This document shows, piece by piece, positions 3 to 24,198 of a DNA stretch of 64,000 bases. The stretch comes from a virus. The DNA lies in IMG/VR virus record IMGVR_UViG_3300021440_000013, positions 62,001 to 126,000 of that record, one strand, 5' to 3'. Position 1 is the stretch's first letter. Every line of letters begins with the position of its first letter. Made by a program: the position numbers and the translations under genes. A model generated the notes under the pieces. It worked only from the letters and a program-made list of their open reading frames with translations, searched no databases and was not told where the DNA came from.

Positions 3-3000
3 TATATCAAACCCTCTACCTTCGAGCAGAAGCTTCTCACCGAGCCGTTCATTGAACGCTCTAAGTTCTATGCAGATGACACCAGTGCAGGAGACTATTT
101 TGGTGTCTCCTGCACCTTAAACGCAGAAGGCGACTACGCGATCGTGGGTGCCTGCTATGACGCAGATAAGGGCACTAACGCAGGTGCCTGCTACGCGTTC
201 AAGCGCGTAGGGCACAACTGGGTTCAGAAAGCCAAGTTTTATGGCCTAAATACTAAAGAAGGCGATCTTTTTGGCGTCGCGGTTTCGATGAACTCGGATG
301 CGAACTTCTTGGTTGTTGGTGCACCGGTAGGTAGTACGGAGGGTCGAGTTAATAGCGGCGCGATCTATCTGTTTGATCGTGAAGGTGAGACGTGGCGTCA
401 ACGTGGCTTGCCTTGGGCACATAGTGAAGCCATCGCTAACAACGGCCGGATCTTTGCTCGGTCGGTGGCCGTTAGTGATGATGGTGTTCACCTTCTTATT
501 GCCGCCTCTGCGGCTGATCAGGCTCCTGGTGGTCCGGCGTCAGGACTGGTTTACTATGTAACCTATGACGGTTCTGATTTTACTGAGCGTCAGAAGTTCT
601 GGAGTAGCACCGCAACGCAGAGTGACTACTTTGGCCATGGTCTTTCCATGAGCAAAGATGGTTTGATCGCAATCGTCGGTGCGCCTTATGATGATAATGG
701 TGTCTTGACCGACGACGGCTCAGCCTTTGTCTTTACTCGGAGTGGTTACACTTGGACCCAGGAACAAAAACTGATTGCGCCTGAGGCAGCTTCAGGTATG
801 ACGAGTCTTTGGACTTCCGCGATATCGGGAGACGGCAGCATCATTCTTCTCTCCAGTAATAACAGCGCTGGAATGGGTGCGTTTTATCTTTACAAGCGTG
901 TTCTGAGTACCTACACGCTGGTTAAGAAACTTTACAGCAAGGATGGCCAGGCGGGAGACGCGCTTAGTTTTAGCTTGGCGCTAAACTACGACGGTGCGGT
1001 AGCGCTCTCTGGCGCGGTGGGTGACGACGATCGGGGTTCTTCCGCTGGCGCAGTCTACACATTTGGGACTGGTGATATCGTCGGAGAAGGGTATCGCCTT
1101 TGCAACACGATCTATTGCCCTGAAGATCAGCGTAGCGTGGGCGATAATTTTGCCGCTGGCGTTGCGCTCTCTGGCGACGGCAACTATGCATTAATCGGTC
1201 GAACCTTTGGCAATGCTAAAAACGGCGATTTCTTCGCATTTGAAAGAAGTGGGGTCGACTGGATCAGCAAAGGTAGTTTCACCGCAAACGATCTTTCTAA
1301 CACCGATTTGTTCGGACTGCAGATTTCAATGAGTTTAGACGCTCAGCATGCGGTCATATCGGCGCAAATGCAGAGTGCTTCATCTCAGCCTGAAGTAGGT
1401 TCAATTTACTACTTCACCCGCAGTGGCGACACCTGGATCCAACAACAAAAGATCGTTTGCCCGGATGTAGAAGCCTACGCTAACTTTGGTGCTGGCTTGG
1501 CAATCTCTGGAGACTCTCTTCACCTTTTAGTTGGTGCTGAAAATAAAGACGTTGGAGGAAACACCGTGGCGGGTAAAGTTTACTACTTTACCCGAAGTGG
1601 AAACACCTGGACACTTGCAAGCAGTTTTACTCAACCCACTGGGCCTGTCGAACCGTGGCGTTTTGGCGGCGGTATTGCGCTTAACTACACGGGTGATTAC
1701 GCCATGGTGGGTGGGGTCTTCACATCGCTAACGGGATACGCTTCCGGCGCAGTGAATGTCCTTAACCGCAGTGGAAACACCTGGACCGGAACAGGACTGA
1801 TTGAAAGCCCTGAAAAGAACAGTGAGTCAACTGCGTTTGGTATTGGTATTGCGATAAGCCGCGATCTTAAGATCGCACTCATCGGCGCTTCGATTGCAGA
1901 TGGACTTTATCGTGACGAAGGTGCGGTTTACCTCTATGAGCGTAACGCCATCACCTATAAGTGGGACTTCGTACGCAAAATCGCACGGCCATTCAGGAAT
2001 TTTATCAGCTTTGGTCGAGCAGTGGCGATGAGTGAAAACGTTAACCACGTCCTTGTGTCGGAGCCACGCAGCGGGTATGCTGGCTCTGAAACAGGCGCTT
2101 TCCATTATTTCTCAATGGGACGTGAGAGCGATATCGTGCCGGTCGATGATAACCAACATCGGTTTAGAAGCGCTGTTGTTCCGATTGACGCAGGCCCGCT
2201 TGACCAATTTGGTTACAAAACTGCGATTCATCCCTCAGGTAACTGGATGATCGTAGGTGCGCGTAATAAAGACTTGGGTGGTATCGAAGCCGTTGGGAAA
2301 TATTACAGCTACAGGCGGATCGGTAACAAATGGGTCTATCACAGAAGCCACAATGGTAATTATGATCCCGGTATGGGTATAAATCCAGCGTTTGGTGCGT
2401 CGCTGGCATGGGCTCAGAAAACAGGCGGCTACTATGCCATTGGGGCTCCGAACGATGCGACCTACGGCGCCTCATTGGGCGCAGTCTATCTTTACACGGT
2501 GAGTAATCTCAGTCCGACGACTTTTGATCTTCCGAGCTTCGTCAGGATTGCATCGAATGCTCCGCAAAGCGGAGAGAATTTTGGTGAGGGCGTTGCCTTG
2601 TCGGGCGATGCGGAATACATCGCGGTTGGTGCGCCTTTTTACAGCGGCACTGTGACAAACCAGGGCCGCGTTCAGATCTTTACGCGGGTAGGAAGCGTTG
2701 TTACGCACCAAGCGACGATCGTGGCACCCACGCCTCAGAGCAATCATCGTTTTGGTAACCCCGTCGCAATCAATGGCGCAGGTGATGTACTGGCGGTCTC
2801 CGCTTACCATGACAGCAATGCGATGAATGACGGCGCCTCTCTAGCTGGAGCAGTCTTTATCTATAAGCGCGTGGGTTCTGTGTGGTCCTTCGCTGAGAAG
2901 ATCTTGCCGCCTGAAGTCACCACGGGTTTTGGCATCGGCTTAGCCTATGCCGAAAACAGAAAGCTTCTTCTGGTGAGTGCCTTTAAGCCAGGTCAGGTGG

Positions 3001-5393
3001 ATGCGTCGGTTTATCAGTATGACCTGAGTGGCAGTAACGCCGTTTATCAACGAAAAGCACTCACGGTCAAAGCGGGCATCAGTGACGTAGATGGCCAATA
3101 CCCACCCAGCCTCTCAACGGATGCATGGGGGCGCTGGATCGCCGCAGGCTGCTTTTATAAGGATCTCAGTGGCGTGGACAGTGGTGAAGTCCGGATGTTT
3201 AGCACCATGGATTTTAACTTCCAGACTGAGCCATATCTACTCATGGGTAATGAGAAGAAAGCGCTTCAGTTGAAAAAGATCCTGCCGCCTGTTTTGAACG
3301 CAAGCTTTAACTTCGGCGACCCGGTCAAAATCAGTGGTGATGATAATTACCTCGCGGTCTCTGAGCACTATGCGGCCGTTGCTGGCGTTACCAACGCTGG
3401 ACGTGTTCGTATTTTCACCAAAAACACCGAAGGTAACTGGGTACTTCAAACCACACTTGAAAACCCACTCCCGGTGGCAAACGATTACTTCGGAACCGGG
3501 CTTTCGTTTAATGAAGATGCCACTTACCTCATCGTGGGTGCGTATCGTGCAGACACGACAGCGGCCGATGCAGGCATCCTTTACACCTACACGCGTAGTG
3601 GAACCGTTTGGACCCGTGGTGCTTCGATCAATATCCCGGAAGCCGTCAGTGGTAATGAGTTCGGTATTTCGACTGCTCTTTCCACCAATCAACTCTATTT
3701 GGCTGTAGGTGCTCAAGTAGCTGGCGGGATTGTGGCGGGCTCTGGTGCGGTCTATTTGTTCTCAAGATCCAATACCGCGAGTGCGTGGACTTATCTCTAC
3801 AAGCTCTGGCCGTCCGATGGTGCATTGAACGACGGCTTTGGTCGGTCAGTTTCCTTTAGTGAGGACGGTTCACGGATGGTGGTGACCGCCTATGTCGATT
3901 CGGGCGCAGTTAACTACGTCGGCTCGGTCTATATCTACAAACGACCCGATTTGTCGCTCGACAACTGGATCTTGCAAGCGAAGATCTACGCACCTGAAGG
4001 CATCACGGATGATCGCTTTGGTATTTCGGCAAGTATCTCTGCCGATGGCGCGATCCTTGCGGTAGGTGCTTCTGCGCGAGACGATCGTGGTATGAACTCC
4101 GGGTGTGTCTACATCTATACGTGCCGTGGTAACGATTGGAAATATCGGTTCAAGATCTACCCCGATGATCCGATCGCAGGTCAAAGCTTTGGCATTTCGG
4201 TATGCTTTAGTAAATACGCCAACCACCTTTACGTGGGTGCCCAGTCGGACCCTCAGGCAGGTGCAAACGGCGGCGCGGTCTACGACTTCCTGATCAACAC
4301 GTCTGCCCAGGAAGTTAAGTACGGTTCACGCCTGGTGCCTGCCTACCGGTTCTCTGATCCGGTGCTTGCAAGCGGAGATGAGTTCTGCGGTGGGTCAGCG
4401 ATCAGTGAAGACGGTACGATGATGCTGGTGGGTTATCGTAAGGACGTCAGCACAGGCAATAAGGGTTACGTGTGGTTTTATAAACGTGACCAAGGTAAGA
4501 ACAACTTCCCGACCGCACCGACGGCGATCTTCGGCGCGCCTGACGGCGCCGCAAGCGATGGTTTTGGTGAACATATTGCTACCGATTCCACTTTGACACA
4601 CATTCTGGTCTGCGCCACAGGTGCGCCACTTGGAGGTGTTGAGCGAGGGAAAGTCTATTACTTCACACGCTCGGGTGATACGTTCACATTTGTGCAATCA
4701 ATCACCTCTCCTGTTCCGACCGACAGTGAACGATTTGCAGCGATAGTCGCTATGAACGATGCGGGTGACATAGCGTTGATTGGTAACTACAACTCTACGC
4801 CAGCGATCACCGGAGGTACGGCACGCGGTTCTGTTCATGTCATGACACGTAGTGGTTCAACCTGGACCCAGCAGCAAGTCATTCTTGCCCCCGATAAGGC
4901 GGACGGAGATAACTTTGGAACTCACATCGCAGTTAATAGCGATGCCACCCAGATCCTGATCACGGCCCGCTTTGATGATGACAGTGGAGCAGACACCGGC
5001 TCCGTTTATTACTACACACGGAGTGGTTCGGTCTACACGTTTGTAAACAAGGTCTACGATCCGATTCCTCAAACGGATACGCGCTGGGGTGGTGCTTTGT
5101 CACTCAACAGCGATGGGACGATTGCTACCATTGGTAACAGCAAGCGCGTTATAAACGGTTCCGTCTCGGGCGTGATCAACCGCTATAAACGCACCGGTTC
5201 GGTCTGGAAGCGCTATGAAGAAGTAGAAGGCGTTATCCCGACCAACGTCTGGGCTATTTTTGATCTCAACGTTTACGTGAGTAGAAATCAGAACTTCATG
5301 ATCGTTCCTGATAATGCTGGTGTATCGGGGCGCAACGGCGGACACACCCTTTACGCTAACCCAACCGTTAACCCTGAGTTCTTCTATAAGTAA
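3..5393 (+). CDS. Giant FG-GAP repeat protein, probable tail fibre or surface adhesin (5' partial)
   Basis: The reading frame is open from the left edge (frame starting at base 3) to a TAA at 5391, so at least 1796 residues are present and the N-terminus lies outside the window. The GTG at 144 is an internal valine, not a start. The whole chain repeats units of roughly 50-60 residues with a core like FGxxVALSGDG, a VGAP/VGA strand, an acidic loop, then GAVYxFxRSGxTW. This is the FG-GAP or integrin-alpha type repeat, which folds as beta-propeller blades. A terminator and a tail-fibre-chaperone-like gene follow. A role in fibre or adhesin structure is inferred from the repeats and this neighbour; no catalytic residues are recognised. 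Confidence 0.85.
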   Translation, partial: YIKPSTFEQKLLTEPFIERSKFYADDTSAGDYFGVSCTLNAEGDYAIVGACYDADKGTNAGACYAFKRVGHNWVQKAKFYGLNTKEGDLFGVAVSMNSDANFLVVGAPVGSTEGRVNSGAIYLFDREGETWRQRGLPWAHSEAIANNGRIFARSVAVSDDGVHLLIAASAADQAPGGPASGLVYYVTYDGSDFTERQKFWSSTATQSDYFGHGLSMSKDGLIAIVGAPYDDNGVLTDDGSAFVFTRSGYTWTQEQKLIAPEAASGMTSLWTSAISGDGSIILLSSNNSAGMGAFYLYKRVLSTYTLVKKLYSKDGQAGDALSFSLALNYDGAVALSGAVGDDDRGSSAGAVYTFGTGDIVGEGYRLCNTIYCPEDQRSVGDNFAAGVALSGDGNYALIGRTFGNAKNGDFFAFERSGVDWISKGSFTANDLSNTDLFGLQISMSLDAQHAVISAQMQSASSQPEVGSIYYFTRSGDTWIQQQKIVCPDVEAYANFGAGLAISGDSLHLLVGAENKDVGGNTVAGKVYYFTRSGNTWTLASSFTQPTGPVEPWRFGGGIALNYTGDYAMVGGVFTSLTGYASGAVNVLNRSGNTWTGTGLIESPEKNSESTAFGIGIAISRDLKIALIGASIADGLYRDEGAVYLYERNAITYKWDFVRKIARPFRNFISFGRAVAMSENVNHVLVSEPRSGYAGSETGAFHYFSMGRESDIVPVDDNQHRFRSAVVPIDAGPLDQFGYKTAIHPSGNWMIVGARNKDLGGIEAVGKYYSYRRIGNKWVYHRSHNGNYDPGMGINPAFGASLAWAQKTGGYYAIGAPNDATYGASLGAVYLYTVSNLSPTTFDLPSFVRIASNAPQSGENFGEGVALSGDAEYIAVGAPFYSGTVTNQGRVQIFTRVGSVVTHQATIVAPTPQSNHRFGNPVAINGAGDVLAVSAYHDSNAMNDGASLAGAVFIYKRVGSVWSFAEKILPPEVTTGFGIGLAYAENRKLLLVSAFKPGQVDASVYQYDLSGSNAVYQRKALTVKAGISDVDGQYPPSLSTDAWGRWIAAGCFYKDLSGVDSGEVRMFSTMDFNFQTEPYLLMGNEKKALQLKKILPPVLNASFNFGDPVKISGDDNYLAVSEHYAAVAGVTNAGRVRIFTKNTEGNWVLQTTLENPLPVANDYFGTGLSFNEDATYLIVGAYRADTTAADAGILYTYTRSGTVWTRGASINIPEAVSGNEFGISTALSTNQLYLAVGAQVAGGIVAGSGAVYLFSRSNTASAWTYLYKLWPSDGALNDGFGRSVSFSEDGSRMVVTAYVDSGAVNYVGSVYIYKRPDLSLDNWILQAKIYAPEGITDDRFGISASISADGAILAVGASARDDRGMNSGCVYIYTCRGNDWKYRFKIYPDDPIAGQSFGISVCFSKYANHLYVGAQSDPQAGANGGAVYDFLINTSAQEVKYGSRLVPAYRFSDPVLASGDEFCGGSAISEDGTMMLVGYRKDVSTGNKGYVWFYKRDQGKNNFPTAPTAIFGAPDGAASDGFGEHIATDSTLTHILVCATGAPLGGVERGKVYYFTRSGDTFTFVQSITSPVPTDSERFAAIVAMNDAGDIALIGNYNSTPAITGGTARGSVHVMTRSGSTWTQQQVILAPDKADGDNFGTHIAVNSDATQILITARFDDDSGADTGSVYYYTRSGSVYTFVNKVYDPIPQTDTRWGGALSLNSDGTIATIGNSKRVINGSVSGVINRYKRTGSVWKRYEEVEGVIPTNVWAIFDLNVYVSRNQNFMIVPDNAGVSGRNGGHTLYANPTVNPEFFYK

Positions 5394-6510: not shown

Positions 6511-7251
6511 ATGACACGGACCCTTCAGTGTGTGCTGGGGGTCCTGTTCTATGCTTTTTGTATGCTAAGCATGGCGCAGGACGTTAAAACTTATATCCCC
6601 GAGAAGGCCTACCCACTGCTTCCGATCTTTTATAAAGAAGCGGGTAGGCTCATGCCCTATATTCCAACGCCGGCGTATTTTGGTGCTTTGGGTGAACAGG
6701 AGAGCTGTCTTTCACTTAAACACAGTCGGTGTTTCTCGCCAACTTCACAACTTTTAACACCACGGGAACAAGGTCTTGGGATTTTCCAGTTGACTAGGGC
6801 TTTCAAAACCGATGGAAGCACGCGCTTTGATGCACTTAGTGACATGCGTAAAAACTATGCCACTGAGCTCTCGGAGCTCTCATGGACTAACTTAAAGAGT
6901 CGACCGGATCTACAAATCCGAACAGCTGTCTTGATGGTACGAGAAAGCTATCAGCGCTTAGCAGGCGTTAAAGACCCTATGGCGCGCCTTCAGATGGCCG
7001 ACGCAGCCTATAACGGCGGGATCGGGGGCACACTCAAGGAAAGAACTGCGTGCGGCTTAGCGGCTAACTGTGACCCCTCTAAATGGTTTCATAATGTCGA
7101 GCTGTATTGCCTAAAAAGTAAAAAGCCGCTTTATGGGAATCGCTCCGCATGCATGATCAATCGTGAACACCCAGAGCTCATTTTTAATCACCGTCTTCCC
7201 AAGTACCAGCGGCACTATGAAGACTTTATAAAACGAGGTGTTAGAACATGA
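6511..7251 (+). CDS. Secreted lytic transglycosylase (SLT fold)
   Basis: 246 residues. An N-terminal hydrophobic signal segment (about residues 4-21, ending before AQD) predicts export. The SLT features follow: a catalytic-type Glu in ALGEQESC (about residue 60), GLGIFQLTRAF in place of the usual GxxQ(I/L)T block, and AAYNGG (about residue 165). Several cysteines (ESC, RC, AC, NC, YC) suggest disulfides outside the cytoplasm. The substrate would be peptidoglycan. The family resembles single-domain transglycosylases seen in integrative elements and large phages. Its stop overlaps the start of the next gene (ATGA), so the two are translationally coupled. Confidence 0.8.
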   Translation: MTRTLQCVLGVLFYAFCMLSMAQDVKTYIPEKAYPLLPIFYKEAGRLMPYIPTPAYFGALGEQESCLSLKHSRCFSPTSQLLTPREQGLGIFQLTRAFKTDGSTRFDALSDMRKNYATELSELSWTNLKSRPDLQIRTAVLMVRESYQRLAGVKDPMARLQMADAAYNGGIGGTLKERTACGLAANCDPSKWFHNVELYCLKSKKPLYGNRSACMINREHPELIFNHRLPKYQRHYEDFIKRGVRT

Positions 7252-8063
7252 ATTCGTCCTTAGAGGCGTACCAGCTTCTTGAAAAGCTGGCCGCCAAACC
7301 GATCGACAGCACTTCGTTTCCAACTCACTTTAATGTCGTGATGCGTTTAAAGAACGCCATGAGTGATCCTGACGTGCCTTTTAAGAAAGTCATCGATATT
7401 CTTAGGGGTGAGGTGGTCGTGAGCGCCAAGATCATAAAGACTGCCAACGCGGCAGTCTATCACGGCTATGGCGAAATTAAAGATATCGAAAAGGCCGTCA
7501 TGCGTCTAGGCTTGCAGGCGGTTAGACGCATCTCTTTGGGCATAGCGATGGCGCAGCTCTCCCACTCTAAAGAGATGCTCCACTACACAGCGCTAAGTCG
7601 TTTAATCTGGCTGCATTCGATCTATACGGCCTCCGCGGGTTATGTCTTAGCCCGCGAGTTTACCAAAGTGCATCCTGACGAAGCGTTCTTCACCGGCTTT
7701 GTGGTTAATCTAGGTGCGTTTTACCTGCTTTATAAAGCATCGAGTCATCCTGAACTCAGAGGAGTGGAAGACGATTTAAAGAGCGCAGTGATCACGCATC
7801 ACTTGGCGCTGAGTAGAAAACTTCTTATTCATCTTGAAATGCCGGGCTCGATGGTTGAGGCACTCTACATCGGAGAAGAGGACCATCTTCTTCCCAGTAA
7901 GCCGGTGACTTTACGTGATATCACCCATACGGCCAATAGACTGGCGACGGCGAAGTATAGCTGGTATGAAGAGCGTGAAGAATGTGCTTTTTCAGAAGAA
8001 GTCAAAGCGCTCGAACCGTTGATCAGTGAACATTTTAAAAACACGTTAGCAGAGTTTCGATAA
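7248..8063 (+). CDS. HDOD-domain protein
   Basis: 271 residues. The HDOD fold is recognisable from the N-terminal PVxP-like region through ISAKIIKTANAA (written VVSAKIIKTANAA here), the helix IEKAVMRLGLQAVRRISL, the central HSIYTA segment and FFTGFVVNLGAF. HDOD proteins are non-enzymatic relatives of HD phosphohydrolases and usually act in signalling or stress responses. The gene overlaps the transglycosylase stop by four bases and a strong terminator follows it. Why a phage carries it beside a cell-wall enzyme is unknown. Confidence 0.75.
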   Translation: MNSSLEAYQLLEKLAAKPIDSTSFPTHFNVVMRLKNAMSDPDVPFKKVIDILRGEVVVSAKIIKTANAAVYHGYGEIKDIEKAVMRLGLQAVRRISLGIAMAQLSHSKEMLHYTALSRLIWLHSIYTASAGYVLAREFTKVHPDEAFFTGFVVNLGAFYLLYKASSHPELRGVEDDLKSAVITHHLALSRKLLIHLEMPGSMVEALYIGEEDHLLPSKPVTLRDITHTANRLATAKYSWYEEREECAFSEEVKALEPLISEHFKNTLAEFR

Positions 8064-8530: not shown

Positions 8531-9850
8531 ATGGCTCTACCGACCGTATTTAATGACACCAGCTCCACCCAGCGCAACTTTGTTCGCTCGCTCGTTAGGG
8601 GCGCATACGCACTCCAGCAACTGCGCATCCAAGCAGGAAACCGCATCGTCACCAACTATAAAGTCAAGCTCGGGATAGAGCCTGGCAAGGCAGAGAAAGA
8701 CACCAAGATCGCCGCAGAGATCCTCGATGAGTTGCGGAAAAACTACGCCCTTATCACAGACGGGATCGCGGACGAGATCGCTGCTGGAGAAGTGCTCGAG
8801 GATGAGGACGAGGACGAGGACGAAGAAGAGGACGACACAGAAAGCCCGCAAACAAAAACCCGTATTGGGAGGCTTCCGACACCTAAAAAGTTTAAGGAAC
8901 AAGGCCTCATCACAAACTACACCGAACTGATATTGGTCAACCAATACTTCGTCATGTGTAGTGCCGAGGAGCGTGAGTTCTCAAGATTGAAAAAACTGCT
9001 TGAGATGATCCCTATTTACAAGAACTTCCTCAAGAAGATCAGAGGTATGGGTCCCGCGATGGGTGGGGTGATTGTGAGTGAGATCGATATCCACTTGTCG
9101 GAGTATCCGTCGTCGATCCATGCTTACGCTGGACTCGACACGACGATCATCGGCTACTACGTCGATAAAAAGGGTGAAGAACAGACCGTTCGTGGGGACG
9201 AAGTTGCCAAGTTCTACGAAGATGGCGATCTGGATAAGGTTATGACCGTCAATGGTTTTGAAGTGAAGTACCGTTCGGTTGGTCGTTCCCGCAAAGGACC
9301 GTGTCTCGTAAAGCGCGAATACGTCTCAAAAGACGGGAAGCTCAATGTTCGCGACTCCATCACGTTTAACCCGTTTCTTAAAACCAAGCTCGTAGGTGTG
9401 TTGGCGGGAAGCTTTTTGAAACAATCCAGCACTTTTGTTGACGGAAAGAAAATGGGTGTGGGAAAGCGCACCGCATTGGCTAAGCAACTTGGTTGGAAAA
9501 TGGATTCGAAAAGTGAACTCACTTCCACTAAGCAGGTTGACGCGTTTCTTTCGCGTCAAGGTTATGAGCTTGAGTTTGTGATGGGTGAATGGGCGGAGTA
9601 TTACTACAACTACAAGCACCGTATTAGCAACATGCCTGAGCATGCCGAGAAGACTGAACTGCATCGGCACAACATGGCGGTGCGCTTTATGATCAAGCGC
9701 TTCCTTGTTGAGCTTTATAAGGTTTGGCGTGCAATGGAGGGTTTGCCTGTCGCTGAAGAATACAGCGTTGCTAAGCTTGGCATGGCGCATGGTAAGGCCA
9801 AGGGTCGCCCTGATGCACAAGGTCTTCAAAAGCTCGTTAAACGCGCCTAA
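8531..9850 (+). CDS. IS110-like helix-hairpin-helix protein without a visible RuvC domain
   Basis: 439 residues; start after AAAGGAATTGAGCC. The central part, FLKKIRGMGPAMGGVIVSEI then SSIHAYAGLD (about residues 170-210), matches the C-terminal Transposase_20 helix-hairpin-helix of IS110-family recombinases. The later NPFLKTKLVGVLAGSFLKQ and the end part with HNMAVRFMIKRFLVELYKVWR fit the same domain. The N-terminal about 90 residues lack the DEDD RuvC-like motifs of true IS110 enzymes, and a run of Asp/Glu (about residues 90-105) separates the parts. No flanking insertion ends are seen. It lies right before the 36-nt periodic array, which makes a nucleic-acid-binding partner role plausible. 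Function is inferred from the fold only. Confidence 0.7.
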   Translation: MALPTVFNDTSSTQRNFVRSLVRGAYALQQLRIQAGNRIVTNYKVKLGIEPGKAEKDTKIAAEILDELRKNYALITDGIADEIAAGEVLEDEDEDEDEEEDDTESPQTKTRIGRLPTPKKFKEQGLITNYTELILVNQYFVMCSAEEREFSRLKKLLEMIPIYKNFLKKIRGMGPAMGGVIVSEIDIHLSEYPSSIHAYAGLDTTIIGYYVDKKGEEQTVRGDEVAKFYEDGDLDKVMTVNGFEVKYRSVGRSRKGPCLVKREYVSKDGKLNVRDSITFNPFLKTKLVGVLAGSFLKQSSTFVDGKKMGVGKRTALAKQLGWKMDSKSELTSTKQVDAFLSRQGYELEFVMGEWAEYYYNYKHRISNMPEHAEKTELHRHNMAVRFMIKRFLVELYKVWRAMEGLPVAEEYSVAKLGMAHGKAKGRPDAQGLQKLVKRA

Positions 9851-9867: not shown

Positions 9868-9896
9868 AAGGGAGGGGTGTTAAGCCCCCTCCCTTA
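9868..9896 (+). terminator. Hairpin terminator after the IS110-like gene
   Basis: AAGGGAGGGG/CCCCTCCCTT stem. Only a weak T stretch follows, so it may be partly leaky into the downstream array. Confidence 0.6.
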
Positions 9897-9948
9897 TCAA
9901 GTACAGACTATTCATCCGTTGTTGAAGAGCTCGCCATAGGCTTTTACA

Positions 9949-10853
9949 CACCCAATCAAAAGTAGCGCAGCAAGACAGAAAATACACCCAAGCAGAAAAA
10001 TTGAATCGGTGCTCCGAAGAAACCCAAGAATACCTACTGTATCAATCAAGAAAAGACACCCATTATACTTCTATGTATCAGTAACGAGTAGACACCCAAG
10101 TTTACTAAGTGAGTCAGTTAATAGAAAACACCCAAATAAAATTAGCGCACCATGATAGAAAATACACCCAAGTAAGTTTAGTGAATCAATAAGCAACATA
10201 CACCCAGTAAGAACGTAATAGAATCAGTGATAACAAACTCACCCATTGGAGTTTAGTGTGTCATCAGTTATTATAAAACCATAGCAACAATACGCACCTC
10301 TTTACACTAAACACCCAAGCCGCGACAGTGCGTCACTCTAGAATAGACACCCGGACCGAAAAATACATCAAAAGAAACAAACTCACCCATTGAAACGAAA
10401 TGCGCCAAAAGACTCAGCTTCACTCAAGTGTAGATAGCGCATCAGTAACGAGAAAACTCACTCAATGAAAATTAGTGAGCCACTATGAAGTAAACACCCA
10501 ATTGTAAATTAGCGCATCAGAGAAATTTACACACCCACGCTACCAAAGTGTGTCATTGAATCATAGACACCCATATTGCAACAACGCATCACCTGTTTCA
10601 AATACACCCAGCAATAAAAAGTGTGTCAGATATGCCGACATGCCCAAAGCAGCGAAGCGCATCAAGATCAACTATTACACCCAATGGTACGAAAATGCAG
10701 CATTCCAGTTCAGTCATCCAAGCTACGAGACTGAGCCATAGTGTTAAAATCACCCAGATGATCGCAGCGAACCAAGGCCGATTAGACACCCAATCATTTG
10801 TAGTGGATCGATGGATGTGAGTCACCCACTCGTTTTGAATGTTGTTTAAAGAT
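9949..10853. repeat. Periodic array of about 25 degenerate 36-nt units, non-coding
   Basis: CACCCA (or a one- or two-base variant) recurs at 9949, 9985, 10021, 10057, 10093, 10129, 10165, 10201, 10240, then with one poor unit at about 10279, 10312, 10348, 10384, 10421, 10459, 10495, 10532, 10568, 10605, 10641, 10678, 10715, 10751, 10787 and 10823. Spacing is 36 in most steps and 37-39 in the others. Inside each unit a second block, AGYGNRTCA, sits nine bases after CACCCA in most units. The nine bases between the blocks and the roughly twelve after the second block vary freely. The region has no convincing gene, is AT-rich, starts after the hairpin at 9868 and stops at the terminator at 10857. 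It is not a CRISPR array, because the conserved parts are far too short. Candidate roles are a protein-binding array or a repetitive non-coding RNA. Confidence 0.9.
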
Positions 10854-10856
10854 GAC

Positions 10857-10891
10857 CCAGAGCTTAACGGCTCTGGTGTCATTTTCTTTTT
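10857..10891 (+). terminator. Rho-independent terminator closing the array
   Basis: CCAGAGC/GCTCTGG stem, then ATTTTCTTTTT. It suggests that the array is transcribed on the + strand. Confidence 0.75.
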
Positions 10892-18067: not shown

Positions 18068-18292
18068 GTAAAAAAGTTACACCGATCTATATGCCTTGGT
18101 AGCGCAGTAAAGGCTACCTAGACGAACTCAGCCGTTTAATTGTCCAGTTAACTCTGTAGACAGCACTGAGGGTTTTTCGAAAAGAAAAACCCTACACGCG
18201 GCTCACACCCGCGTGTAGGACTCACTATTCGATAACAGCATGGAAAGTAGTGCTTTCTCTCCACTCTATACTGAGTGTGATAGATTTTTTTA
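18068..18292 (+). ncRNA. Structured non-coding element, copy A1 (no tnpB directly attached)
   Basis: First of two tandem copies before the tnpB-like gene at 18542. Shared order of parts: GTAAAAAGTT-like start; stem GGTAGC/GCTACC (about 18098-18119); AGGGTTTTTC/GAAAAACCCT hairpin; CCTACACGCGG/CCGCGTGTAGG hairpin (18191-18219); a variable stretch of about 30 bases; CTTTCTCTCCAC; a small hairpin CACTC/GAGTG; and a T run ending at 18292. The parts are conserved in A2 and in the element at 31937, while sequences between them differ. This pattern fits a terminated RNA of about 200 nt. Confidence 0.65.
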
Positions 18293-18297
18293 CCACG

Positions 18298-18523
18298 TAG
18301 TAAAAAGTTCTACGGCTGACAAATGTTCTGGTAGCGCAGTAAAGGCTACCTAGACGAACTCAGCCGTTTAATTGTCTGGTTAAGTCCATGATAGCACTGA
18401 GGGTTTTTCGAAAAGAAAAACCCTACACGCGGCAGAGACCCGCGTGTAGGAACTTCCAATCGAGAGCTAACGCAACACGTTGTACTTTCTCTCCACCTTA
18501 TACTGGGTGTGATAGATTTTTTT
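18298..18523 (+). ncRNA. Structured non-coding element, copy A2, immediately before a tnpB-like gene
   Basis: Near-repeat of A1 with the same stems (GGTAGC/GCTACC; AGGGTTTTTC/GAAAAACCCT; CCTACACGCGG/CCGCGTGTAGG at 18422-18450) and the same terminal hairpin plus T run. The roughly 30 bases between the third stem and CTTTCTCTCCAC differ from A1. The gene starts 19 bases after the T run. It could be a guide-type RNA for the nuclease or a leader that controls it. Confidence 0.65.
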
Positions 18524-18541
18524 ACTCAAGGGGGACTTATT

Positions 18542-19690
18542 GTGAAAACGATAGTTCGAGGTTACAAATATACGCTTAAACCTAATGCAAGTCAAATCAA
18601 AATACTTGACAGCATGCTTCGGGACTGTCGAAGCTTTAGGAACCGCGTGTTACGCTTCATTAAAAAGCGTCGCTCAACGAGCCTTGACTGGCACAAAGAG
18701 TTCGATATCAAGAAAGTCGTGAAGATTGGTGAGATCATTAAGTATCTCCACTTTCAAAACACGAAAGTGCCAGGGCGTGCGCTTACGACGGTATGCGAAC
18801 TTCTCCATAGCCAACACAAAGCCACGGATCTACTCAAACAAAAACCCCCTATGTATAAGGGTTTGGAGTCAGAGTATGCCATCCATCTACCGCGTGAGTG
18901 TGTCAAGATCATTGACAATAAACTCTATATCACGGCTCTAGAGGACGCGCTCGATGTAAAATGGTCACGCGCCTTTGATACTGAGCGTATCGTAAAGGTG
19001 ATCATAAGTCGTAGTCGCTTTAATAAATACACCATCTCTTTTGATGTCCGCTGTGATGTAGAAGAAAACCATGGCGCAAGCGTAATCGGAATCGACGTCA
19101 ATGTCTCGGACGTGGTTGTGACTTCAAGCGGCATTAAGTTTCCAGCATCACCCATTCCTAAAGAAGTGGGCCAAAGGATCGATACATGGATCAAGATGCT
19201 GCCCCGCTTTAAATATAACTCTCGCGCTTATAGGAAAGTCATTCAAAGAATCCAAACCTTCACCAAGAAGGCAGACGCTATACGAACGACCTATTTTTAT
19301 AAGATCGCGCACCAGCTAGCCGATCAAGCTCATATCTTTGCGGTTGAACGACTTAACATCGCTAAAATCATCGTGAGTGCCCGCTATCAAAACTCCATCA
19401 CCATGTCCGCGTGGGGTCAGCTCAACTTGATCTTAAAGAATGTGGCGGAGAAGCGCAGAGTCATCATGGTTTACGCTGGACTCTATTTTCCGAGCACGCG
19501 CCTTGCGTCGTGCTGTGGGTATTTAAACTCGGAAGCTATCCCTACGAGCGTACGAGAATGGGACTGCCCAAACTGCGGGACGGTACTTGATCGTGATGTT
19601 AACGCCGCTGTCAATATCCGTAACTTCGCCATGGACAGCTTAAAGAAGTTTAAAGGTCAGATTGAAACTGTCGATTACGTTATCTGCTGA
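18542..19690 (+). CDS. TnpB-like RuvC nuclease, copy 1
   Basis: 382 residues from the GTG at 18542, chosen because it aligns with the ATG start of the copy at 32157 (KTIVRGYKY/KTVVRGYKY). IS605/IS607 OrfB family: N-terminal basic RNA-binding region, RuvC-I Asp in IGIDVNVSD (about residue 185), RuvC-II Glu in FAVERLNI, zinc segment ASCCG then CPNCG, and RuvC-III Asp in LDRDVNAAVNI. All three catalytic acids are present. The first Cys of the usual CxxC is Ala here, with a neighbouring Cys. There is no TnpA partner and no recognisable element ends. The family cuts DNA guided by an RNA; whether the upstream element is that RNA is an inference. Confidence 0.85.
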   Translation: MKTIVRGYKYTLKPNASQIKILDSMLRDCRSFRNRVLRFIKKRRSTSLDWHKEFDIKKVVKIGEIIKYLHFQNTKVPGRALTTVCELLHSQHKATDLLKQKPPMYKGLESEYAIHLPRECVKIIDNKLYITALEDALDVKWSRAFDTERIVKVIISRSRFNKYTISFDVRCDVEENHGASVIGIDVNVSDVVVTSSGIKFPASPIPKEVGQRIDTWIKMLPRFKYNSRAYRKVIQRIQTFTKKADAIRTTYFYKIAHQLADQAHIFAVERLNIAKIIVSARYQNSITMSAWGQLNLILKNVAEKRRVIMVYAGLYFPSTRLASCCGYLNSEAIPTSVREWDCPNCGTVLDRDVNAAVNIRNFAMDSLKKFKGQIETVDYVIC

Positions 19691-21571: not shown

Positions 21572-21590
21572 CTTTTATATGTTCATTGAC
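21572..21590 (+). promoter_or_regulatory. Possible early-type promoter
   Basis: TTTTATATGTTCATTGAC resembles the recurring motif (TATAT, then TTGAC). If correct, it overlaps the in-frame ATG at 21579 and favours the later start at 21603. Confidence 0.4.
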
Positions 21591-21602
21591 TGGAGCGCCA
21601 TC

Positions 21603-22778
21603 ATGCGTGTAATCAATCGCCACACCGCAAGCGAAGATGAGCTTGCAAAAAGTGTCTATGTGGGTCGAGGCACGCCGTTGGGTAACTGGTTTCCGACCGG
21701 AACAGAATACGGCGACAATGAAAATGTCGTTAAGTTATACCGCAGAAAGCTTGCGCGTAAGCTCATTTCACGTGACGCTAAGGTCGAGAATGCGCTTAGG
21801 GCATTGAATAAAGACAGCATCCTTGCGTGCTCCTGTAAACCTAAGGCCTGCCATGGGGATGTACTAATTGAGTTCTGGGAAAGGCTCTATGGGCAAGGAG
21901 GTTCTTATGAAGAGAACCTCCTTAAGCTAAGGCGCGATCTGGGTATCGAGGACTTTAACTACAGTCCAATTGATGATGGCGTTACCCACATCAACGTCTG
22001 GAGTAAGGGCCGGACTGAACTGGGTCGACTTCTAAGTAACTTTGCGCACACGCCCTTTAAACACCCGGAGTATGGCCATTTTGCTTCAGTAGAAGCCTTT
22101 TGGTACTGGTTGAGTTTGGGTCAAACCAACGATGAGCTGCGTGGCCTTCATGGCTTTCAATCAAAACAGGCCGGCAGGCTGATTCGTGATGAGGTTTTAA
22201 AGCATAGCAAGTTGCCCCATGTTGAAAACTTTGATGCAAAAATCAAAAAAGCCATCCTTTGTAAGATCGAACAAAACGATCACGTCAAAGAACTTCTTCG
22301 TTTAAGTGAACTGCCATTAACGCACTATTACGTCTGGGGAACATCTGAGAGCTATAAGCAGACCTATCCAGAAGAGTACGCATGGATCCACGAATACATC
22401 GCTGATGTGCGTGATTATCTTAAAGCTAAGGCGCACCGCTTAGTCATCGCGGGTTCTCGCTCGATCACGGATTTTAACGCATTAGAAAGAGCGTACCATG
22501 AAGCGAAGTTTAAAGCCATCGAGATCGTCTCGGGCCGGGCACCAGGTGTCGACACGTTAGGGGAGGTTTTAGCAAAAAAGCTTAAACTGCCCGTGGCGCT
22601 TTTTCCGGCAGACTGGGATGGCTTAGGAAAGCGGGCGGGCTTTATCAGAAATGAGGCGATGGCTGACTATGCAGACGCTGGGTTGATTCTCTGGGACGGG
22701 GTAAGCCCAGGCACTCAACACATGGTTAATGCGCTCAAAACGCGTAATAAACCCTTTAAACTCATCACCATTAAGTGA
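21603..22778 (+). CDS. Three-domain fusion: DUF4326, NADAR and YspA-like SLOG domain
   Basis: 391 residues from the ATG at 21603, which follows GGAGCGCCATC; an earlier in-frame ATG at 21579 sits inside a promoter-like sequence. Residues about 1-95 match DUF4326 (VYVGRGTPLGNWF, ILACSCKPKACHGD). About 125-270 look like NADAR (WSKGRTELGRLLSNFAHTPF, SVEAFWYW). About 280-391 form a DUF2493/YspA Rossmann domain of the SLOG superfamily (RLVIAGSRSI, VSGRAPGVDTLGE, KRAGFIRNEAMADYADAGLI). NADAR enzymes can remove ADP-ribose from modified nucleobases, and SLOG domains bind nucleotide-type ligands. A role in countering NAD- or ADP-ribose-based host defence is a reasonable inference, not shown. Confidence 0.75.
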   Translation: MRVINRHTASEDELAKSVYVGRGTPLGNWFPTGTEYGDNENVVKLYRRKLARKLISRDAKVENALRALNKDSILACSCKPKACHGDVLIEFWERLYGQGGSYEENLLKLRRDLGIEDFNYSPIDDGVTHINVWSKGRTELGRLLSNFAHTPFKHPEYGHFASVEAFWYWLSLGQTNDELRGLHGFQSKQAGRLIRDEVLKHSKLPHVENFDAKIKKAILCKIEQNDHVKELLRLSELPLTHYYVWGTSESYKQTYPEEYAWIHEYIADVRDYLKAKAHRLVIAGSRSITDFNALERAYHEAKFKAIEIVSGRAPGVDTLGEVLAKKLKLPVALFPADWDGLGKRAGFIRNEAMADYADAGLILWDGVSPGTQHMVNALKTRNKPFKLITIK

Positions 22779-23046: not shown

Positions 23047-24198
23047 ATGAAAGAAAAAATACTCACTCGGGGGTACAAGTATCAAATACATCCGACACCC
23101 GAACAAGCTAAGCATCTTAACAAGGTAATGCGAGACTGTCGAAGTCTGCATAATCGTGTATTAAAGATGATGAAAGCCGCGCGCTCTACCATAAAGCCGT
23201 GGACAGAAGAGTTTAAGTTTGAAGATATCTTGCGTTATGGTGAGAGTCTAAAACACGGTGTCTTTAAAGGCTCGGTAGCACCTGGGCGTGTTCTAACCAA
23301 TGCTGTCGAAATTTTGTATCGACAGCATAAAGTGGTTGACCTTCTAAAACAGAGCGATCTGAAGTTTAAACGGCTTGACGGGTTTCACTCTGCCCATTAC
23401 CCGCGTGAACTGATTCGTGTTAATAACGACTTTCTTCACATAGCTGGCGTTGAGGGTGAGATCGCAATCTCAATGAGTCGTCCGTTGCCTTCACATGACT
23501 TTACGAAGGTGGTGATCTCCAGATCGAGCGAAGGACGCTACTACGCGTCGTTTAACGTGCGTGTAACGCCTCATGGTCTGCATGGAGATGAGGTTGTCGG
23601 GATCGATCTTGGTGTGATCGATCTAGCCGTCACGTCTTACGGTGAGAAGTTTAAAACAACGCCGCAGCCTGATGTCGTGATTAAACGTTTGTGTCGTTTT
23701 CACAGTCTTTTAAAAGAACACACACCTCTGTCATATGTGTGGCGCACACTTCACGCTAAGTTGTCTCGCTTTAAGCGTAAGGTCGTTAACCAACGAAATA
23801 CCCACTTCTGTCAGGTTGCCGCCTCGATTGTCAAGAAAGCCTCCGCGATCGCCTTAGAAAACCTTAACATCGTCAAGATGCTTTTGACGAGTAAGTATAG
23901 TCACGGCATCATGCAGTCTGCCTGGGACGGTTTTCAGAGAGTCTTAGTTGAAGCAGCACAAAGAGCCGATATCCCAGTGGGGTTTGTGGAAAGATTCTTT
24001 CCAAGCACGCGCCTTGCGTCATGCTGTGGTTATTTGCACCCACAGCCTATACCGACCTATTTTCGTGAATGGGAGTGTCCTGACTGCGGGGTCATCCTTG
24101 ACCGAGACATCAATGCAGCAATCAATCTTGAACGACGCTTTAACGCATGTTTAAACACACACGGCATCAAGGGTTTTAAAATAGTAAAACTAGACTAA
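23047..24198 (+). CDS. TnpB-like RuvC nuclease, copy 2
   Basis: 383 residues. Same family as the copies at 18542 and 32157 but more distant. Catalytic acids are seen in VGIDLGVIDLAV (RuvC-I), IALENLNI (RuvC-II) and LDRDINAAINL (RuvC-III). The zinc segment reads ASCCGYL then CPDCG, with the same missing first Cys. N-terminal region KILTRGYKYQIHPTPEQ. No TnpA or element ends. A terminator hairpin follows the stop. Confidence 0.85.
   Translation: MKEKILTRGYKYQIHPTPEQAKHLNKVMRDCRSLHNRVLKMMKAARSTIKPWTEEFKFEDILRYGESLKHGVFKGSVAPGRVLTNAVEILYRQHKVVDLLKQSDLKFKRLDGFHSAHYPRELIRVNNDFLHIAGVEGEIAISMSRPLPSHDFTKVVISRSSEGRYYASFNVRVTPHGLHGDEVVGIDLGVIDLAVTSYGEKFKTTPQPDVVIKRLCRFHSLLKEHTPLSYVWRTLHAKLSRFKRKVVNQRNTHFCQVAASIVKKASAIALENLNIVKMLLTSKYSHGIMQSAWDGFQRVLVEAAQRADIPVGFVERFFPSTRLASCCGYLHPQPIPTYFREWECPDCGVILDRDINAAINLERRFNACLNTHGIKGFKIVKLD

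What the first reader, a model, noticed from the sequence alone, without database searches (positions are those of the whole stretch)
9949..10853. Non-coding array of about 25 degenerate 36-nt units next to an IS110-like protein
CACCCA recurs at nearly constant 36-base steps (16 of about 24 steps exactly 36), and a second block AGYGNRTCA sits nine bases after it in most units, while the rest of each unit varies. The array begins just after the hairpin of the IS110-like gene and ends in its own terminator, so it may be a transcript. It is not CRISPR (conserved parts of 6 and 9 bases, no spacers of fixed type), not a coding repeat and not a normal iteron set. IS110 recombinases use structured bridge RNAs, so a helix-hairpin-helix relative beside a repetitive non-coding region is a natural candidate for a new RNA- or DNA-guided system. 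A binding array for partition, replication or packaging is the main alternative. Basis: the periodicity is seen; function is inference.
Basis: partly seen in the sequence, partly recalled or inferred. Interest (0 to 1): 0.93.

Follow-up and report, generated by a model that had tools for sequence, protein, structure and literature searches.

The report
TIGR-Tas guide array in jumbo phage
A giant, probably nucleus-forming bacteriophage carries a gene and a 25-unit array of short paired guide sequences that together form a TIGR-Tas system, an RNA-guided DNA-binding machinery described in 2025; the find is a new member of that known kind in a class of virus not named in the founding paper's main text, and what it targets is still unknown.

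Summary
The repeat array is real and is a dual-repeat TIGR array beside a nuclease-less Tas (TasA-type) gene. It has 25 units: edge AGYGNRYCA, spacer A (9 nt), loop ANWCACCCA, spacer B (9 nt). It starts with a degenerate edge, ends in a truncated one, and is followed by a terminator hairpin.

The neighbouring 439-aa protein matches the NCBIfam TIGR-Tas model. Its predicted fold matches TasH-tigRNA and TasR-tigRNA cryo-EM structures best, ahead of IS110 and Nop5. A DNA scan of IMG/VR with the repeats alone found 67 loci. Of these, 48 encode a Tas protein nearby, and 97 of 98 arrays lie on the tas strand. A mirrored control pattern found none.

The phage has a homologue of the nuclear-shell protein and phiKZ-type RNA polymerase subunits. 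Its closest Tas relatives (42-50% identity) lie in other large phage contigs; the five of those tested also have a shell homologue.

Related arrays rearrange at edge repeats, so whole guides are swapped. No targets were found in the phage's own genome or in about 2.3 Mb of mostly TIGR-bearing phage DNA.

What remains open is the target and the role.

The parts
8531..9850 (+). tasA-type gene, 439 aa, Nop-domain protein without a recognised nuclease domain
   Evidence: NCBIfam NF052498 TIGR_Tas_endo E 3e-19; phmmer hit to TasR 9mty E 9e-6; Foldseek hits to TasH/TasR-tigRNA complexes; starts directly with the coiled coil
9870..9895 (+). G+C-rich hairpin after tas with no strong T-run (GGGAGGGG...CCCCTCCC); array may be read through from tas or have its own promoter
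   Evidence: sequence; not listed as a terminator by the scan
9910..9927 (+). degenerate loop-like block ATTCATCCG and 9-nt spacer TTGTTGAAG, possibly remnant of one more unit
   Evidence: dynamic-programming parse
9928..9936 (+). first (5'-degenerate) edge repeat AGCTCGCCA
9928..10841 (+). TIGR array: 25 units of edge AGYGNRYCA - spacer A 9 nt - loop ANWCACCCA - spacer B 9 nt
10838..10841 (+). last, 3'-truncated edge repeat AATG
   Evidence: sequence; Faure et al. describe a 3'-truncated edge before the terminator
10857..10876 (+). intrinsic-terminator-like hairpin (CCAGAGCTTAACGGCTCTGG) ending the array transcript

Best explanation
The locus is a TIGR-Tas system of the nuclease-less (TasA) type in a probably nucleus-forming jumbo phage. 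The array is read as one precursor RNA and cut within the edge repeats (AGYGNRYCA) into 25 tigRNAs of about 36 nt. A TasA dimer holds each tigRNA through the box C/D-like ends of the edge and loop repeats. The two 9-nt spacers then pair with opposite strands of an approximately 18-bp DNA site. With no nuclease, the complex would bind and bend its target and silence or block it rather than cut it. Shown here: repeat anatomy, identity of the protein, linkage of repeats and gene across viruses, and whole-unit turnover at edge repeats. Inferred from characterised relatives: processing, RNA binding, tandem-spacer DNA targeting. Not known: the targets and the benefit to the phage. The most likely use is interference with, or control of, DNA that is not the phage's own.
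For: Protein: NCBIfam TIGR_Tas_endo 3.3e-19 and no IS110 model hit; profile of P0002 plus relatives hits TasR 9mty 1e-23 and TasH 21kl 2e-16. The AlphaFold model (mean pLDDT 80, about 90 in the core) finds TasH/TasR chains as the top ten PDB hits, well ahead of Nop5 and IS621. Array: edge/spacer/loop/spacer in 9/9/9/9 register, truncated last edge and terminator. Nearly the same repeats (AGCGAGCCA and AGACAACCA) occur in Salicola phage CGphi29, whose system was shown to make 36-nt tigRNAs and cut DNA. Association: the repeat-only pattern finds 67 IMG/VR stretches, 48 with a Tas ORF; 97 of 98 arrays are on the tas strand; control pattern 0 hits. Evolution: spacers shared between related arrays stay joined across CACCCA (87 kept, 8 broken) but are separated across AGYG (76 kept, 65 broken), so edge-to-edge is the unit.
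Against: P0002 scores below the curated NCBIfam cut-off (69.7 against 100 bits); it carries two large insertions absent from smaller relatives. Several repeats in the array are degenerate, so partial decay is possible. No target was found. No RNA data exist.
Confidence: 0.9

Rival explanations
1. The array is a DNA-level binding site (partition, replication or packaging) for the adjacent protein, not a guide RNA source.
For: Regular spacing on one strand, many units; TasA genes are sometimes in operons with ParB-like genes.
Against: The two blocks alternate with fixed 9-nt variable stretches that differ between phages, the array is followed by a terminator, and it lies on the same strand as tas in 97 of 98 arrays of relatives. 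Units are exchanged edge to edge. Relatives with nearly the same repeats are processed into 36-nt RNA.
Confidence: 0.03
2. The gene is an IS110-family recombinase and the array a multi-copy bridge-RNA-like element.
For: Weak Transposase_20 match (E 0.054) and a phrog named transposase.
Against: No DEDD catalytic domain; the chain starts with the coiled coil. NCBIfam TIGR-Tas is the only family hit and IS110 gives none. IS621 structures rank far below Tas structures.
Confidence: 0.02
3. The TIGR-TasA locus is decaying: the gene persists but the array no longer makes a useful set of guides.
For: Seven of the 25 CACCCA blocks deviate and some edge repeats lack consensus bases; no targets found.
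Against: 439-aa open frame without stops and invariant residues kept; box C ends of nearly all repeats kept (position 8 is C in 24 of 24 of both repeat types).
Confidence: 0.07
4. TasA uses the tigRNAs to regulate the phage's own genome.
For: TasA has no nuclease, so self-binding would be tolerable.
Against: No excess of tandem matches in the own genome over re-paired spacers, with either pairing.
Confidence: 0.1

Closest known systems
TIGR-TasH of Salicola phage CGphi29 (SpTIGR)
   Same: Phage-borne; edge AGCGAGCCA / loop AGACAACCA almost the same as here; truncated last edge next to a terminator; homologous Nop domain (solved TasH structures 9w04, 9vzx, 21kl)
   Different: SpTasH has an N-terminal HNH nuclease, 8-nt spacers and a shorter array; the protein here has no HNH and two extra insertions
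TIGR-TasA (solo-Nop) systems, e.g. Flavonifractor plautii FpTIGR (PMC12045711)
   Same: Nop protein without nuclease, dual-repeat array, 9-nt spacers
   Different: Here 439 aa with acidic and Nop-domain insertions, 25 units (paper: most often 5-15), in a probably nucleus-forming jumbo phage
Microcystis phage Mvi-JY20 241-aa protein (XAI95461.1) and its array
   Same: Solo Nop protein followed at once by a dual-repeat array and terminator; C-terminal 47.6% identity over 42 aa
   Different: Half the size, about 8-nt spacers in the units read by eye, repeats ATGCGAGCCA / ACGAAACCCA
Large-phage contigs G001-G007 in IMG/VR (e.g. IMGVR_UViG_3300047472_000309)
   Same: Closest Tas (42-50% identity, about 410-450 aa), same repeats; nuclear-shell homologue in the five tested
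   Different: Array mostly upstream of tas, no shared spacers with this phage
IS110 bridge-RNA recombinases and archaeal box C/D snoRNP (Nop5)
   Same: Nop-domain RNA-binding fold
   Different: Catalytic or fibrillarin-recruiting domains; single guide RNAs, not arrays; much weaker structural match

Membership tests
TIGR-Tas, dual-repeat type | Two distinct alternating 8-12-nt repeats separated by 9-nt spacers, 36-nt units | tested here: met
   9/9/9/9 register, 16 of 25 steps exactly 36
TIGR-Tas, dual-repeat type | Array begins with 5'-truncated edge and ends with 3'-truncated edge plus intrinsic terminator | tested here: met
   Degenerate first edge 9928, AATG at 10838, hairpin 10857-10876
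TIGR-Tas, dual-repeat type | Adjacent Nop-domain Tas protein | tested here: met
   score below the curated NCBIfam cut-off
TIGR-Tas, dual-repeat type | Repeats and gene travel together in other genomes | tested here: met
   48 of 67 repeat-found loci have tas; control pattern 0
TIGR-Tas, dual-repeat type | Processing into 36-nt tigRNAs bound by Tas | not testable with these tools
   needs RNA sequencing
TIGR-Tas, dual-repeat type | Tandem-spacer DNA targeting | tested here: inconclusive
   No targets in own genome or about 2.3 Mb of fetched, mostly phage DNA; three 18-mer scans at about the few hits expected by chance
TasA subtype | No HNH or RuvC domain | tested here: met
   No Pfam nuclease; N-terminus is the coiled coil; insertions have no recognised family
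IS110 recombinase | DEDD (RuvC-like) plus serine catalytic domains | tested here: not met
CRISPR array | One repeat of about 25-36 nt with spacers of similar size, cas genes | tested here: not met
   Two 9-nt repeats and 9-nt spacers; neighbouring ORFs tested show no Cas or defence-system family

The most novel reading that the evidence does not exclude
Nucleus-forming jumbo phages carry their own clade of enlarged TasA proteins with long, rapidly reshuffled tigRNA arrays and use them as a cleavage-free, RNA-guided silencing arm against competing phages, plasmids or host genes; the arrays diversify by exchanging whole guides at edge repeats, without adaptation genes.
Probability: 0.3. Interest if true: 0.75.

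Novelty: new member of a known kind. Interest (0 to 1): 0.5.

Why it matters
TIGR-Tas systems were described in 2025 with unknown natural targets, unknown role for the nuclease-less TasA, and unknown array growth. This places TasA in a clade of nucleus-forming jumbo phages (the main text of the founding paper does not mention jumbo phages). It also gives a concrete rule for how arrays change: units swap at edge repeats. Families of related arrays in one phage clade are what is needed to hunt for targets.

Tried and rejected
(1) First labelled CACCCA as edge and AGYG as loop. Rejected, because arrays in CGphi29 and Mvi-JY20 begin and end with the AGYG-type repeat, as does this one, and rearrangement breakpoints lie there too. 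The target searches used the wrong pairing and were redone, with the same negative result. (2) Own genome as target: no excess over permuted pairings. (3) About 2.3 Mb of fetched DNA, mostly TIGR-bearing phages, as target, all 642 spacer pairs: no excess in the predicted orientation. (4) Three exact 18-bp targets in IMG/VR: 1, 3 and 1 hits in different contigs, about what chance gives. (5) Direct protein search in IMG/VR with the tas protein failed, as did a search with the neighbouring HDOD gene; the repeat pattern worked instead. (6) Rfam: nothing in the array. (7) PADLOC: no hit. (8) No tblastn match to the protein at E 1e-5 among 50,697 phage records, although 281 of them have the RNA polymerase relative.

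Full report
OBSERVATION. The array is real. CACCCA occurs 18 times in 9900-10880 (shuffles: mean 0.86, maximum 4). Lag-36 identity is 0.40 against 0.273 +/- 0.013 in 500 dinucleotide shuffles, and lag 36 is the best of lags 5-129. A full parse gives 25 units from 9928 to 10841: edge AGYGNRYCA, spacer A, loop ANWCACCCA, spacer B. Sixteen of 25 steps are exactly 36; 40 of 50 spacers are 9 nt. A terminator-like hairpin follows at 10857-10876. Apart from a duplicate view of this stretch, no other array was found in the 216,876-base record.

WHERE. The window is bases 62001-126000 of an IMG/VR virus record. It is a phiKZ-type jumbo phage: several RNA polymerase beta and beta-prime fragments and a homologue of the nuclear shell protein gp105 of phage 201phi2-1 (E 5e-12, 24% identity over 471 aa, G000:2723-4075). 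It is therefore probably nucleus-forming.

THE PROTEIN. The 439-aa product of 8531-9850 scores only weakly with Pfam Transposase_20 (E 0.054). It matches TasR (PDB 9mty) at 9e-6 by phmmer and at 1e-23 with a profile of relatives, and TasH at 2e-16. NCBIfam's only hit is TIGR_Tas_endo, 3.3e-19, though below the curated cut-off (69.7 against 100 bits), as expected for a chain with insertions. The AlphaFold model (mean pLDDT 80; about 90 in the core) returns TasH and TasR chains as its ten best PDB matches. Archaeal Nop5 (3pla) and IS621 (8wt6) come far behind. The chain begins with the coiled coil, so there is no room for an N-terminal HNH or RuvC: TasA type. Two insertions (about 205-250 and 300-350) and an acidic, disordered stretch (about 86-111) are absent from the 290-330-aa relatives.

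THE ARRAY IS A TIGR ARRAY. Faure et al. (PMC12045711) define alternating 8-12-nt edge and loop repeats with 9-nt spacers, a 5'-truncated first edge, a 3'-truncated last edge and a terminator. All are met. Salicola phage CGphi29, whose tigRNAs and DNA cleavage were shown experimentally, has repeats AGCGAGCCA and AGACAACCA, nearly those seen here. In that array and in Microcystis phage Mvi-JY20 the AGYG-type repeat is first and last, hence it is the edge.

INDEPENDENT TEST OF GENE-ARRAY LINKAGE. A DNA pattern made only from the repeats found 67 stretches in IMG/VR. The same pattern complemented but not reversed found none. Of the 67, 62 hold a scored array and 48 a Tas ORF by HMM. In those 48, 97 of 98 arrays lie on the tas strand, at a median of 159 bases from it, 57 downstream and 41 upstream. 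The closest Tas proteins (42-50% identity) are in contigs G001-G007 of 172-315 kb. The five tested (G001, G003, G004, G005, G006) all have a nuclear-shell homologue.

HOW ARRAYS CHANGE. Related arrays share some spacers and not others. In 14 locus pairs with at least six identical spacers, neighbours across the CACCCA repeat were kept 87 times and broken 8 times, whereas neighbours across AGYG were kept 76 and broken 65 times (Fisher P 2e-10; pairs are related, so this P is too small). Thus whole edge-to-edge units, i.e. whole tigRNAs, are gained, lost or exchanged. This supports the edge/loop assignment without any RNA data. This phage shares no unit with the other seven contigs compared.

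TARGETS. By the published cutting rule a target should read spacer B followed by the reverse complement of spacer A, gap 0-2. In the own genome plus other fetched DNA (about 2.3 Mb in all, mostly TIGR-bearing phages, arrays masked), neither this array (23 pairs) nor all 642 pairs exceed re-paired controls in that orientation. Three 18-bp exact scans of IMG/VR gave 1, 3 and 1 hits, about what chance gives. Targets remain unknown, as in the original paper.

MECHANISM. Shown: anatomy, protein identity, linkage, unit exchange. Inferred from characterised relatives: precursor cleaved within edges to 36-nt tigRNAs; TasA dimer; each spacer pairs with one DNA strand; strong bending. Inferred from the lack of a nuclease: silencing or blocking rather than cutting. 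The own genome as target is disfavoured but not excluded, because mismatch tolerance of TasA is unknown.

VERDICT. A clear new member of TIGR-Tas (TasA type), in a phage class not mentioned in the main text of the founding paper. Interest lies in the jumbo-phage clade, the enlarged TasA and the unit-exchange rule.

Noticed in passing
window 18097-18600 and 18509-19690, 23047-24198: Two TnpB-family genes (NF040570); a roughly 230-bp imperfect direct duplication with two hairpins lies just upstream of the first. Possibly guide-RNA or insertion related.
   Followed up: partly
window 144-5393: 1749-aa protein with 17 FG-GAP repeats.
   Followed up: no
window 7248-8063: HDOD-domain protein (E 8e-26) just upstream of tas; a scan of IMG/VR found no close relative.
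   Followed up: partly
window 21579-22778: Fusion of DUF4326 and a YspA-like SLOG domain.
   Followed up: no
G000:C1:2723-4075 (outside the window): Homologue of the phage nuclear shell protein gp105.
   Followed up: yes
L003 (Microcystis phage Mvi-JY20, PP438412.1 21367-22440): Unannotated TIGR-TasA system in an isolated phage with known host; annotated as hypothetical protein. A tractable model.
   Followed up: yes
L014, L016, L017 (Rhodococcus, Gordonia, Mycobacterium phages): Tas-like genes, in related mycobacteriophages annotated as transposase or DNA-binding protein, flanked by palindromic blocks like the published stem-loop TIGR arrays; the Mycobacterium phage copy sits beside a gene annotated as Cas4 exonuclease.
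   Followed up: partly
G005:C1:156243-157403: The tas gene of this large-phage contig holds an internal TAA stop beside arrays of 43 parsed units.
   Followed up: no
L101:4879-5409 (G008): A second array of 14 units in G008, far from its other array and tas.
   Followed up: no
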